Shown here piece after piece: positions 8,344 through 12,951 of a stretch of 33,114 bases of DNA (the first letter of the stretch is position 1; each line of letters opens with the position of its first letter). Below the pieces are notes generated by a model that was not told the DNA's origin, did not search any database, and saw only the letters and a program-made list of their open reading frames with translations. The DNA is from Campylobacterota bacterium (lineage in GTDB: Bacteria; Campylobacterota; Campylobacteria; Campylobacterales; Sulfurovaceae): the NCBI GenBank assembly GCA_015494795.1, contig WGAM01000128.1, positions 1-33,114 of the forward strand. The letters are read 5' to 3'. The position numbers were made by a program, and so were the translations under genes.

Positions 8344-9656
8344 TGAAAAATTTAATATATACACTAAAGTGGTTAATTAAGCGACCACTATTTTTACATA
8401 AAGAGTTTAAAAATTTATATCAAAAGATAATCTACCAATCAAAATCACAATTTCTATTAAGCAGTTATGACCCCTCAATATGCCCTTTAGAGCCTATTAA
8501 ATTTTATACTTTTATTGGAAGAGTTGGATTTGCACTTAAAGAGTTTATAGCATTAATATCTAATGAGACTTTTTTTAAAAAGAGTATATTGTTAGATGGA
8601 TTTGATAATATAGATTTAAAAAAGATATATATTGGAGATGATAATACTCCACACCCTAAACCTCCATTAGTAGAGTTAGAGAAGAGTAAAAAAATAGATG
8701 ATACTATATTTCTAACCATTGAAAAATCTTACTTTTTAGCAGATAGCCAAGACCCCGATAGATTTGATAGAGCATCTTGGTGGGAAGAGATGAGTAGAAG
8801 ATTTAGAGATGAGCTATTTAATGAAAATGGAAAGATAAATAGAGACTATTTAGTAAACTTTAGAGGTATTAAAGAGCTACCAGCAAATATTGTAAAAGAC
8901 CAATTTTTAGTGGTAAATAGAGGTTTTGGATACTATATCTCATATCTAAAAGCTATAGATTTAGTTTTAGAGTACCATAGATATGCAAAAGTAGTAAAAA
9001 AAGAGATACTATTTAGCCTATCAGAGAGTTATGCAGGGAATAATCTTGCAGTTCACTATAGAGGAGTTAGATTAAGTATTAGACTACTATTTCACTCTAT
9101 TATATTAGATAATATAATAACTAATACTAATTTTAATAGTAGAGTTACTATATGGGAGATTGGTGCAGGTTATGGAGGATTAGCTAGAGTTTTAAAGAGT
9201 TATATTAATAATAGTTGTCATATTATTTTAGATTTACCAGAGACTCTAGTATATGCCTCATACTTTATTGCCTATAATTTTCCAGATAAAAAAGTTGCCT
9301 ATCTTAGTGATATTATAGATAGATTAGATAGTTTTAATGAGTTAATAGATGAGTATGATTTTATACTTATTCCACCTTGGGTTAGTAGATATATTCCAGA
9401 TAGTAGTATAGATTTAGTAATAGATACATACTCTCTAGGAGAGATGTCAAAGAGTTATGCTAAATACTACTTAGAGCATATTGATAGAACTCTAAAAGTT
9501 GGAGGATACTTCTACTCTATAAATAAGAGATTTAAGAGAGAAGATGATAAATTAGGCTTTTATGAGTGGAGATTTAAGAGTCAATTTACAACTATACTAT
9601 ATGAGTATAGTAAATATATCCACCCTCAATGGTTAGGTAAAAAGATAAATTATTAG
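8343..9656 (+). CDS. Putative sugar O-methyltransferase (NanM-type family)
   Basis: The 437-residue protein has an N-terminal region of unknown role and a methyltransferase core from about residue 215. The SAM-binding motif reads IWEIGAGYGGLAR, followed by HIILDLPETLVYASYF and a DLVIDTYSLGEMS segment; this set is characteristic of the 'putative sugar O-methyltransferase' family (TIGR04371, recalled, not searched). It probably methylates a surface glycan. The ATG overlaps the stop of the gene before it in TAATG, so the two methyltransferases are translationally coupled. Codon use (AGA, GAG, TTA/CTA) matches the operon and differs from mcrB downstream. Confidence 0.8.
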   Translation: MKNLIYTLKWLIKRPLFLHKEFKNLYQKIIYQSKSQFLLSSYDPSICPLEPIKFYTFIGRVGFALKEFIALISNETFFKKSILLDGFDNIDLKKIYIGDDNTPHPKPPLVELEKSKKIDDTIFLTIEKSYFLADSQDPDRFDRASWWEEMSRRFRDELFNENGKINRDYLVNFRGIKELPANIVKDQFLVVNRGFGYYISYLKAIDLVLEYHRYAKVVKKEILFSLSESYAGNNLAVHYRGVRLSIRLLFHSIILDNIITNTNFNSRVTIWEIGAGYGGLARVLKSYINNSCHIILDLPETLVYASYFIAYNFPDKKVAYLSDIIDRLDSFNELIDEYDFILIPPWVSRYIPDSSIDLVIDTYSLGEMSKSYAKYYLEHIDRTLKVGGYFYSINKRFKREDDKLGFYEWRFKSQFTTILYEYSKYIHPQWLGKKINY

Positions 9657-9681
9657 GATAATTAATTTTTATAATTAGGTG

Positions 9682-9715
9682 AACATTTTAAACTACATCA
9701 AAATATTAAAATGTT
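9682..9715. repeat. Perfect 10-bp inverted repeat after the sugar methyltransferase
   Basis: AACATTTTAA at 9682-9691 and TTAAAATGTT at 9706-9715 are exact inverted copies around a 14-base loop. It lies 25 bases after the upstream operon ends and just before the structured RNA. It could be a weak terminator (no T-run follows) or the left-end palindrome of an IS200/IS605-like element whose right end is at 9859-9885. The loop is larger than typical for such left ends. Confidence 0.5.
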
Positions 9716-9750
9716 ACTATATAAAATATAAAGTTTGTGTACATGTTAAA

Positions 9751-9885
9751 ATCTTCGGATAGACTAATAAGCGACTTAAGTTAGTATCGTTGAAAATCAA
9801 ACTGAAAACAAATCTATATCAGTCAAGGTAGGGTATATCTGACTTTAAATGAAGAATTCACCTCATTCATGGGGTGGAGTATCAA
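9751..9885 (+). ncRNA. Structured RNA resembling a TnpB omegaRNA scaffold
   Basis: Four hairpins follow one another in otherwise weakly structured AT-rich DNA. (1) 9751-9760, ATC-TTCG-GAT, a C(UUCG)G tetraloop. (2) 9763-9785, ACTAA/TTAGT plus TAAG/CTTA with an AG bulge and CGA loop. (3) 9822-9843, GTCA-A-GGTA pairing with TATC-TGAC (one G-U, one bulged A), loop GGGTA. (4) 9859-9876, CACCTCA-TTCA-TGGGGTG. A TATAAA box at 9720-9725 would start transcripts just before hairpin 1. omegaRNAs are made from the 3' end of tnpB and the right end of IS200/IS605 elements, which fits the order and strand. Alternatives are a cis-regulatory leader of mcrBC or an unrelated small RNA. Confidence 0.5.
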
Positions 9886-9901
9886 TATACGGGGAATAAA
9901 T

Positions 9902-11590
9902 ATGAGTAAATTACAAAAATATTTTGATTATTTTGATAAGTACTATGGAGTTGAGAATTGGGATTGGTATAAAGAAGCAAAAAAGTGGATTAAGATATCA
10001 CAAGATATAAAACAAGAAGTTTCTACGACTAATTTTTCTAATAAAAACACTATAAAGATAAAGGAAAATCTTGAAAACATAATTGACAACAAATCAAATT
10101 CTGAATTAACAAGCATTAAGGATTATTGTCAACGCTATTTATTTGAAAGTAGTAATGGACTATCAAGAATTAGACAACAATTACTAACTCACGAAAGAAG
10201 AGATGAAATTATATCAAATTTAAATAATAAGCCAGAATTGCTTGTTAATATATTAAAAGAAAATGACATTTATGAAGCAGAAAATCTCATTCGCAACTTA
10301 GTTGTTGATAACGCTAATTCAGTTATATACAGATTTTTAAGAGCGCTATTTCCAGAAAAATTGGCATCCCCTGATGCACCGAATAGACTAAATCAAAGAA
10401 TTGAAATTATAAAATCAAAACTAGGTGTAAATATAGAAGGTAGTCATTTAGAAAAACATGAAAAATTAATGAATTCTGTTGAATCTGATGATACCATAAA
10501 AAAACAAATATTCTTTTGGGCTATATATGATATGTTAGATAGTAATCTAAATCTAAAAAAGGCAATTGTATATTACGGTGCCCCAGGAACAGGTAAAACC
10601 TATAAAGCTAAAAATATTGCAGAGCAATTTATTGATCAACATCGTATTAAAATTGGAAAGGATATTGGTAGTAATTATAAAATAAAAATAGTTCAATTTC
10701 ACCCCTCTTATTCTTATGAAGATTTCATAGAAGGAATTAGACCAAGTTCTAGTAACTCACTAAAATTATTTAATGGTACATTTAAAGAGTTTTGCAAAAA
10801 TGTAGGGAAAAAAGAAATTGAGCTGTATAAAAACAAGGATTTTATTAATAATGAAGAGTTTAAAAATAAAGGATACAAATTCAGTTTAATTAAAATATCA
10901 GAATTAAATGATGAACAAAAAGAGATATTAGAGATAAATGATAAAGATTTAGCCGAAGGTATAACTATTGAAGAAGTTATTGAGCCTGCATTCTTTATAA
11001 TTGATGAAATAAATAGAGCTGAATTGTCGCGTGTTTTCGGTGAATTAATGTATAGTCTTGAATATCGTGGCTATAATGGAAAAATTAAAACTCAATATTC
11101 ACATTTAAATAAAAAAGAAACTGATGAAAGTATTTTCTTTTGGGAGAATTCAGAAGATTGGTTTTTTATACCACAAAATGTATTTATTATTGGCACAATG
11201 AATAACATTGACCGTTCTGTTGATAGTTTTGATTTTGCATTGAGAAGGCGTTTTATATGGGAAGAAGTTGAACCAAACTTTAATATTGTAAGAAATAAAC
11301 TTAATGCAAATTGGAAAGATAATTTAGCAAGTGCATTTGAAAACTTAAATAAAAAGATTGAAAATGAAGAATTATTAGGCAAAGATTATAGGATTGGACA
11401 TTCTTATGCATTAGAAGTCTTACCTATTCAGAATAGATTTAATTCTCTAACCGAAGTAAAATCATTCCTTTGGAGTGATTTTATAAAACCTCTGTTAGAA
11501 GAATATTTGCGTGGTTTAGGAGATGAACAAAAAACACAGGAAAAATTAAATCAATTTAAAGAAAAATTTGGAATCTCTAATTCATTATGA
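9902..11590 (+). CDS. mcrB: McrB-like AAA+ GTPase of a type IV restriction system
   Basis: The 562-residue subunit is the NTP-driven motor that, with McrC, cuts modified foreign DNA. Residues 1-215 form an unrecognised N-terminal region, the position where McrB proteins hold their target-recognition domain. The AAA+ core has Walker A GAPGTGKT at 226-233, the Walker B segment FFIIDEINRAE at 364-374 and the McrB-specific MNNIDRS signature at 433-439 followed by ALRRRF. The start at 9902 is chosen because ACGGGGAATAAAT gives it a ribosome binding site; an in-frame ATG at 9869 lies inside the terminal hairpin of the upstream RNA. Glutamate is mainly GAA and CGT/CGC arginine codons occur, unlike the neighbours, indicating transfer. 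It overlaps mcrC by 4 bases. Confidence 0.92.
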   Translation: MSKLQKYFDYFDKYYGVENWDWYKEAKKWIKISQDIKQEVSTTNFSNKNTIKIKENLENIIDNKSNSELTSIKDYCQRYLFESSNGLSRIRQQLLTHERRDEIISNLNNKPELLVNILKENDIYEAENLIRNLVVDNANSVIYRFLRALFPEKLASPDAPNRLNQRIEIIKSKLGVNIEGSHLEKHEKLMNSVESDDTIKKQIFFWAIYDMLDSNLNLKKAIVYYGAPGTGKTYKAKNIAEQFIDQHRIKIGKDIGSNYKIKIVQFHPSYSYEDFIEGIRPSSSNSLKLFNGTFKEFCKNVGKKEIELYKNKDFINNEEFKNKGYKFSLIKISELNDEQKEILEINDKDLAEGITIEEVIEPAFFIIDEINRAELSRVFGELMYSLEYRGYNGKIKTQYSHLNKKETDESIFFWENSEDWFFIPQNVFIIGTMNNIDRSVDSFDFALRRRFIWEEVEPNFNIVRNKLNANWKDNLASAFENLNKKIENEELLGKDYRIGHSYALEVLPIQNRFNSLTEVKSFLWSDFIKPLLEEYLRGLGDEQKTQEKLNQFKEKFGISNSL

Positions 11591-12951
11591 ACGCAAAAGA
11601 ATTCTTTCTAAATCATATAAAGGATAATAATTATCAAGGTATTAATCTCGCTGATTATATCAAACCATCTTGGGGAGATGATATTTTTCATAATAAAAAA
11701 AGAAATAAAGCAAAATTTAGAAAAGAAGGAATTGCAAATTATTTAAAAGAATTACATAAAGAAATAGCTAATAAAAAGCTATCAGAATTAAATTTAATTC
11801 AAATAACTTTTGATGAAGAGTATGAAGCAAATATAGAACAAAAGATATTTGACATAAAGGGAGATAATTTTGACAATTTGAAAATATTTACTGGAAATAT
11901 TGTTGGTTCAATTATTTATAAATCACATAATTTTAACATTAATTGTCGATTTGGGAATGAATTTTTACAATATATGATAGCCAATACAAGTGGCTTTTTA
12001 GAACTTGAAAATTTAGGTTCAATAAATGAAAATTTGGGACTTGGCGAATGGATTTTAACTTATTATTGGAAACTTCAATTAAAAAAAGCTTTTGCACTTG
12101 GGATTTATAAAACATATCAAAAAAAGAAAGATAACTTAACATCAATTAAGGGTAAAATAGATATTAATTCTTATTTAAAAAAATCATATTTTGACGGTAA
12201 AACTGTTTGTAGTTTTAAAGAACATAGTTATAAAAATGAACTTAATTCTGTCATTAATATGGCTATGACAAAGGTTTTTAAATCCAAATATCAACCTATT
12301 GTTGCAGATATTTACAATATAAAAAATGCTTTTAATTCAATAAATACTCAAAATTTGAATTTAAGGTCAATTCAAAAGAAAAAAGTCTCAAATCCTTATT
12401 TTAAACAATATAATCAAGTATTTGATTTATCATTAAAAATACTAAAAGATGAATTTGCAAATATGGGGGAATCTAAATCAGATTTTTCAGCATTTCTTTT
12501 TGATATTTCGTTGTTATTTGAACATCATATTAGAAAAATATTAAAAAAGAGCTATTTTCTATTTCCCAAGAATAAAAAAGAATTTAGTATTCCCAATGGT
12601 ATTTATAAGAATAGTATCTATCCAGATATAATTATTGATTATGGAAACAACGAAATTGGTATTTATGACGTTAAATATAAAAATTTCGATTTTACAAACG
12701 GTGTAAAGCGTGAAGATAGATTTCAAATTGTTACATATATTGCAGCTTATTTGAATAAGTATAAAGTTAAAGAGTGTGGTATAATTTATCCTTTGAGAGA
12801 ATCAGATTATGAAAAATTCTCAAAAATAGAACAACAAACATTACATATTGCTATGAAAGAAATTCCTTTTAATATTGTATTATACAAAGTATGCAATAAC
12901 TTAAAAAATCAATTAAAAATGGATGAATTATTTATGAATGATAAAATATAA
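11587..12951 (+). CDS. mcrC: McrC-like nuclease subunit
   Basis: The 454-residue partner of McrB carries the endonuclease. The C-terminal third holds a PD-(D/E)xK core: P346-D347 in YPDIIIDYG, then D361-V362-K363 in IYDVKYK; an upstream acidic residue in the LLFEHHIRKIL helix region fits the family. The N-terminal half (VGSIIYKSHNFNINCRFGNEFLQYMI, interrupted here as NINCRFG...FLQYMI) matches the McrC N-terminal region that contacts the McrB ring. The start overlaps the mcrB stop as ATGA, so synthesis is coupled. Codon use matches mcrB and differs from the flanking glycan genes. Confidence 0.9.
   Translation: MNAKEFFLNHIKDNNYQGINLADYIKPSWGDDIFHNKKRNKAKFRKEGIANYLKELHKEIANKKLSELNLIQITFDEEYEANIEQKIFDIKGDNFDNLKIFTGNIVGSIIYKSHNFNINCRFGNEFLQYMIANTSGFLELENLGSINENLGLGEWILTYYWKLQLKKAFALGIYKTYQKKKDNLTSIKGKIDINSYLKKSYFDGKTVCSFKEHSYKNELNSVINMAMTKVFKSKYQPIVADIYNIKNAFNSINTQNLNLRSIQKKKVSNPYFKQYNQVFDLSLKILKDEFANMGESKSDFSAFLFDISLLFEHHIRKILKKSYFLFPKNKKEFSIPNGIYKNSIYPDIIIDYGNNEIGIYDVKYKNFDFTNGVKREDRFQIVTYIAAYLNKYKVKECGIIYPLRESDYEKFSKIEQQTLHIAMKEIPFNIVLYKVCNNLKNQLKMDELFMNDKI

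What the first reader, a model, noticed from the sequence alone, without database searches (positions are those of the whole stretch)
9751..9885. Structured RNA resembling an orphan omegaRNA directly upstream of mcrBC
Four adjacent hairpins, including a UUCG tetraloop and an 8-bp stem with one bulged A, end in a terminal hairpin plus GGAGTATCAA, the style of an IS200/IS605 right end. No tnpA or tnpB exists here. TnpB guide RNAs are known to come from this part of such elements and have been exapted with nuclease-dead TnpB-like regulators. An orphan scaffold placed at a restriction operon could be a decaying remnant, a trans-acting guide for a TnpB elsewhere, or a new cis-regulator of mcrBC.
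Basis: partly seen in the sequence, partly recalled or inferred. Interest (0 to 1): 0.75.

Follow-up and report, generated by a model that had tools for sequence, protein, structure and literature searches.

The report
Decayed guide-RNA-only jumping gene remnant
The sequence in front of the mcrBC restriction genes is the worn-out remains of a tiny jumping element that carried no protein, only the guide RNA of a TnpB nuclease; it has probably lost that function here, but intact copies of the same kind have multiplied recently in a relative.

Summary
Window ~9701-9885 is a degenerate, protein-less derivative of an IS200/IS605 (ISDra2-like TnpB) element in the 5' leader of mcrB. Its last 68 nt are the 3' core of that element's omegaRNA. 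In Sulfurovum/Sulfurimonas-type relatives, tnpB genes run directly into the same right end (...CACCTCATT.ATGGGGTGGAGTATCAA). A covariance model built only from ten tnpB-linked ends finds the window copy (40.9 bits, E=8e-7). Stem A has the same geometry (bulge after the fifth pair, 5-nt loop) but mostly different letters, and its loop can pair with the TATC of the right end, matching the known TnpB-RNA pseudoknot. The present copy is broken: no left-end hairpin was found, a 33-nt deletion removes stem B, and no cognate tnpB is found in the draft genome (a decayed tnpB tail is). Other copies flank unrelated genes and two mcrB orthologues lack it, so a dedicated mcrBC regulator is unlikely. Verdict: decaying remnant of a guide-RNA-only, PATE-like element. 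In relative G048 nine near-identical 275-bp copies, each right after TTAT, show such elements moved recently. Known kind, new member; the guide-RNA-only family is the interesting part.

The parts
9701..9885 (+). Degenerate protein-less IS605-type element (left limit approximate)
   Evidence: 9701-9732 matches own-genome C4 copy at 94%; 9715-9805 aligns with G019:C3 copy, score 110 against a best of 51 in 2000 shuffles; 9731-9851 and 9849-9885 match the G013:C76 element at 76% and 97%
9714..9733 (+). AT-rich promoter-like stretch (TATAAAATATAAAG), similar in relatives; promoter activity is inference
   Evidence: Alignment; not called by the consensus scan
9751..9760 (+). AUC-UUCG-GAU mini-hairpin; the flanking stem seen in relatives (GCGU/ACGC, GUGU/ACAC) is broken here
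   Evidence: Sequence
9763..9785 (+). Second hairpin (ACUAAUAAG-CGA-CUUA-AG-UUAGU)
9788..9804 (+). Degenerate hairpin D with loop GAAAATCAA (GARAACCAA in relatives)
9821..9844 (+). omegaRNA stem A; loop GGGUA (9831-9835), of which GGUA can pair with UAUC of the right end (pseudoknot)
9847..9854 (+). Deletion scar AAAT|GAAG: 33 nt with the 5' arm of stem B and the inner stem missing relative to the own-genome C81 copy
9859..9876 (+). Right-end hairpin (stem C)
9876..9885 (+). Right-end terminus GGAGTATCAA, the scaffold/guide boundary; UAUC is the pseudoknot partner
   Evidence: Same terminus after tnpB in relatives
9886..9901 (+). Flank that would be the guide (TATACGGGGAATAAAT); also holds the mcrB ribosome-binding site
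   Evidence: Position after the right end; guide length taken from ISDra2 (PMC10097598)
9902..11590 (+). mcrB-type gene (AAA_5)
11587..12951 (+). mcrC-type gene (PF10117 McrBC)

Best explanation
A short IS200/IS605-family element without tnpA or tnpB, but with its transposon ends and the guide-RNA (omegaRNA) scaffold of an ISDra2-like TnpB, inserted just upstream of mcrB and has since decayed. Shown: common origin with tnpB-linked right ends; stem A, a loop able to pair with the right end, and the right-end hairpin preserved; stem B deleted; left-end hairpin not found. Inferred: intact relatives are moved by a TnpA in trans and make an omegaRNA whose guide is the flanking DNA, so a TnpB supplied in trans could cut element-free sister sites and favour keeping the element. 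In this copy the scaffold is probably non-functional, so it is now mainly leader sequence of mcrBC.
For: Same right end directly after tnpB in G013:C25 and in Sulfurovum, Sulfurimonas and Arcobacter MAGs. Ten tnpB-linked ends share one fold with compensating changes, 0 of 500 shuffles reaching the covariation score. A model from those ten finds window 9818-9885, 40.9 bits, E=8e-7, all stem-A pairs standard, stem B missing. Loop/right-end pairing kept in 13 of 14 examples over three end types, as reported for ISDra2 (PMC10097598). Complete protein-less elements with both ends: G013:C76 and nine 275-bp copies after TTAT in G048. Decay: no left-end remnant above chance, 33-nt deletion, no cognate tnpB at E<=1e-20, decayed tnpB tail in C19.
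Against: No expression data. Non-function is inferred: loss of stem 3b is tolerated in ISDra2, and which parts of stem B matter in this family is untested. The genome is a draft (154 contigs, many ending in IS sequences), so a cognate tnpB may be missing from the assembly. No element-free allele of this locus was seen.
Confidence: 0.85

Rival explanations
1. Functional trans-acting guide: the remnant is still transcribed and its RNA loads a TnpB made elsewhere in the cell, targeting mcrB-leader alleles that lack the element.
For: Stem A, loop pairing and right end are intact; the cell carries TnpB genes or gene fragments of other families.
Against: Stem B is deleted; no TnpB of this family found in the genome; the others examined here have different right ends, either GTTCAC or ATTGACT, with GAAC loops in the GTTCAC family.
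Confidence: 0.05
2. Accidental or co-opted leader: the element now supplies promoter or 5' UTR features that change mcrBC expression, independent of any TnpB.
For: It fills most of the 245-bp gap between the upstream gene and mcrB and ends 16 nt before the mcrB start; an AT-rich promoter-like stretch lies at 9714-9733.
Against: No + strand promoter or terminator by consensus scan; two mcrB orthologues lack a match; no expression data.
Confidence: 0.2
3. Dedicated RNA regulator of mcrBC, for example with a nuclease-dead TnpB-like protein.
For: Position directly upstream of a restriction operon.
Against: Other copies of the family flank unrelated genes; no match at two mcrB orthologues; no TnpB-like gene in the window.
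Confidence: 0.03
4. Chance hairpins or an unrelated repeat.
For: Folding energy not significant; short solo hairpins of the family resemble REP-like repeats.
Against: Homology to tnpB-linked right ends and independent model detection; 9 of 20,000 shuffles.
Confidence: 0.02

Closest known systems
ISDra2 TnpB omegaRNA/reRNA (Deinococcus radiodurans; PMC10097598)
   Same: Related TnpB (L053 vs 8bf8, E=3e-53); scaffold from tnpB 3' end plus right end; stem near the 5' side whose loop pairs with the last bases before the guide
   Different: Window copy lacks the stem-B region and any tnpB; this family's elements insert after TTAT, ISDra2 uses TTGAT
PATE-like element of Halanaerobium hydrogeniformans (PMC7290912)
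   Same: About 271 nt, left-end hairpin, last 58 nt of tnpB and a complete right end, no transposase
   Different: Single copy, not interpreted as an RNA; here many copies, a fold with compensating changes, and recent mobility in G048
PATEs of Haloquadratum walsbyi (PMC3119063)
   Same: Protein-less IS605-related elements with near-terminal palindromes, no target duplication, some reduced to fused ends, as in the short solo hairpins here
   Different: No guide-RNA scaffold reported in the passages read
IS608/ISHp608 of Helicobacter pylori
   Same: Campylobacterota IS605 element; from memory it targets TTAC and ends in TCAA, as these end in TCAA
   Different: TTAT instead of TTAC; different hairpin and scaffold sequences; relation not tested here
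TldR systems (nuclease-dead TnpB-like RNA-guided repressors; PMC13418256, abstract only)
   Different: No TnpB-like gene in the window and no support for a regulator here

Membership tests
TnpB omegaRNA (ISDra2-like) | Scaffold overlaps tnpB 3' end and the transposon right end | tested here: met
   Same right end and scaffold directly at tnpB 3' ends in relatives; in the window itself no tnpB is attached
TnpB omegaRNA (ISDra2-like) | Stem with loop pairing to the last bases of the right end (pseudoknot) | tested here: met
   GGUA/UAUC in the window; kept in 13 of 14 examples over three end types
TnpB omegaRNA (ISDra2-like) | Complete set of scaffold stems, including stem B with inner stem | tested here: not met
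   33-nt deletion removes it; so the window is filed as a defective relic, not a working omegaRNA
TnpB omegaRNA (ISDra2-like) | RNA is made and guides a TnpB | not testable with these tools
   No transcript or biochemical data
TnpB omegaRNA (ISDra2-like) | Match to a curated Rfam model | tested here: not met
   No hit for the window or for tnpB-bearing and protein-less relatives; Rfam does not appear to cover this family, so this is not evidence against
PATE (non-autonomous IS200/IS605 element) | No transposase gene | tested here: met
PATE (non-autonomous IS200/IS605 element) | Near-terminal palindromes at both ends | tested here: not met
   Right-end hairpin present; left-end hairpin not found in this copy, present in relatives
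PATE (non-autonomous IS200/IS605 element) | Insertion without target duplication at a short fixed site | tested here: inconclusive
   Left boundary lost in the window; met in G048, nine copies after TTAT
TldR-type regulator | Nuclease-dead TnpB-like gene beside the guide RNA | tested here: not met
   No TnpB-like gene in the window

The most novel reading that the evidence does not exclude
These elements form a lineage of transposons that encode nothing but a guide RNA: the fold and its pseudoknot are kept by compensating changes, perhaps with their own promoter, because they use TnpA and TnpB supplied by other elements to move and to be retained. The window holds a dying member beside a restriction operon.
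Probability: 0.4. Interest if true: 0.7.

Novelty: new member of a known kind. Interest (0 to 1): 0.45.

Why it matters
Protein-less IS605 derivatives are usually seen as passive passengers of TnpA. If their guide RNA is maintained, they are natural test cases for whether TnpB-based retention can be exploited in trans, and they give natural short omegaRNAs with recent, precisely bounded insertions (275 bp, always after TTAT) from which target motif and guide can be read directly. For the window itself the value is mainly correct annotation: this is a transposon relic, not a regulator.

Tried and rejected
Rfam: no family. Folding energy as evidence: not significant. Promoter/terminator scan: nothing on the + strand, no terminator. 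Search for a left-end remnant in 9640-9713: at chance level. Viral contigs, plasmids and phages: no match. MAFFT alignment of window and non-autonomous copies misplaces stem A, so stem A was compared with the covariance model and by explicit pairing. Three papers looked up by DOI from memory (on TnpB retention, OMEGA systems and TldR) are not held, so whether guide-RNA-only PATEs are already described could not be checked there; from memory, protein-less elements carrying omegaRNA-like sequence may have been mentioned in the 2023 TnpB retention literature, which is why novelty is rated conservatively. One copy list (L101) has a stop in its tnpB frame and was used only for its RNA part.

Full report
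What is there. The window has no tnpA or tnpB. Energy alone does not make the stretch stand out (z -0.97, 34 of 200 shuffles as good), so the case rests on comparison.

Link to tnpB. A search of the window's own genome and 40 relatives found at least partial matches in ten genomes. One of them, G013:C25, shows a tnpB gene (382 aa; Pfam OrfB_IS605 and TNB domains; E=3e-53 to the solved ISDra2 TnpB 8bf8) that runs directly into GAAGAATCCACCTCATTCATGGGGTAGAGTATCAA, the window's right end apart from two letters. Related elements in Sulfurovum, Sulfurimonas and Arcobacter MAGs have the same layout: a left end with hairpin CCACCTC...GGTGG, in several of them tnpA or its remnants on the opposite strand, then tnpB and this right end.

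The RNA fold. Ten tnpB-linked 3' cores (about 98 nt) were aligned. RNAalifold gave the same fold as drawn by hand apart from a few extra pairs: stem A, stem B with an inner stem, and stem C, the right-end hairpin. Counting pairs: 99.2% of cells pair, 6 of 25 pairs change on both sides, and none of 500 shuffles reaches the covariation score. A covariance model from these ten only finds window 9818-9885 at 40.9 bits, E=8e-7, with every stem-A pair standard and stem B missing; the next window hit has 20.2 bits. Protein-less copies elsewhere score 68-98 bits, and lower-scoring relatives occur in G048 and others.

Stem A and the pseudoknot. In the tnpB genes stem A reads UUG-C-CCGUG[GGAUA]CACGG-CAA; in the window it reads AGUC-A-AGGUA[GGGUA]UAUCU-GACU. 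The architecture is the same (bulge after the fifth pair, five-base loop beginning GG) although most paired letters differ. The ISDra2 structure paper reports that right-end bases -5 to -3 pair with bases -105 to -103, which lie between the two arms of stem 1 (PMC10097598). Here the last four bases of the loop pair with right-end bases -6 to -3 in 13 of 14 examples across three end types: GAUA or GGUA with UAUC, GACA or GGCA with UGUC, GAAC or GGAC with GUUC; the G048 copy has one mismatch. Because G-U pairs are allowed, GAUA and GGUA loops would also fit UGUC, so the test separates the GUUC type well and the other two only partly. Stem A geometry plus this pairing appears in 9 of 20,000 dinucleotide shuffles.

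Damage in this copy. Relative to the own-genome C81 copy, 33 nt between 9850 and 9851 are gone, removing the 5' arm of stem B and its inner stem. No left-end hairpin can be found upstream, although the segment 9715-9805 still aligns with the relative G019:C3 far above shuffles. The genome has no tnpB of this family at E<=1e-20, only a decayed tnpB tail at C19, with the caveat that this is a draft of 154 contigs. ISDra2 tolerates loss of stem 3b, so loss of function is likely but not proven.

The family. A complete protein-less element with both ends exists in G013:C76. In G048 nine copies of exactly 275 bp, 98-100% identical, all lie directly after TTAT, end in GTTGTCAA and have different flanks, so such elements moved recently. 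No full-length tnpB of the G045 partner type was found in G048; only two distant partial matches came up, in an assembly rated 84% complete. The internally deleted tnpB of G019:C40 (start fused to the last part of the gene) shows how such elements can arise. Mobilisation in trans and retention through TnpB are inferences from the biology of IS200/IS605 elements and TnpB, not shown here.

Relation to mcrBC. The element occupies most of the gap between the upstream gene and mcrB. The downstream genes are mcrB-type (AAA_5) and mcrC-type (PF10117). Two mcrB orthologues in the order have no match to the model in their loci, and other family copies flank unrelated genes. A dedicated regulator is therefore unlikely; an accidental contribution to the mcrBC leader or promoter remains possible.

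Literature. PATEs are known from Haloquadratum (PMC3119063), and a PATE-like element retaining the last 58 nt of tnpB and the whole right end is known from Halanaerobium (PMC7290912). The thing is thus a new member of a known kind. What would be new is proof that such elements keep a working guide RNA; the compensating changes seen here point that way but rest on few sequences.

Noticed in passing
L217, L221, L223, L225-L230 (relative G048): Nine complete 275-bp protein-less IS605-type elements, 98-100% identical, all directly after TTAT, each with a different flank; a TATAAT-like box lies upstream of the scaffold.
   Followed up: partly
L029, L030, L050, L217, L218; window 9788-9804: Hairpin D: a constant loop GARAACCAA inside stems that change by compensation (CUGU/ACAG, GUAG/CUAC, CUAC/GUAG, CAG/CUG); the same letters code for E-N-Q in the RuvC-II region of family tnpB genes. 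Function unexplained.
   Followed up: partly
G000 C58, C133, C110; many places in G048, G019 and G001: Solo hairpins of about 45 bp that look like left-end and right-end hairpins fused into one (TATCAAACCGTAGC..CCACCTCATTCATGGGGTGGAGTATTAA), comparable to the end-only PATEs of Haloquadratum.
   Followed up: partly
window 9869-9901: The mcrB frame stays open into the right-end hairpin (possible start at 9869, MGWSINIRGIN-), so the relic could extend the protein; the start at 9902 has the better ribosome-binding site and fits an orthologue's N-terminus.
   Followed up: no
G000 C11, C41, C101, C111, C143, C75 (L002, L014, L015, L009, L016, L020): A second IS605-type family in the window's genome (right end ..GGCGGGGTAGTTCAC, stem-A loop GGAAC) sits at many contig ends, so it is probably multi-copy and breaks the assembly; in C11 a tnpA copy of it has inserted into a relative of the window element.
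   Followed up: partly
G000:C134:5356-6627 (L055): Intact tnpB-like gene (424 aa) without the usual E-D-L motif in the RuvC-II region (reads VIGDFSDIK), as in TnpBs with rearranged catalytic residues (from memory).
   Followed up: no
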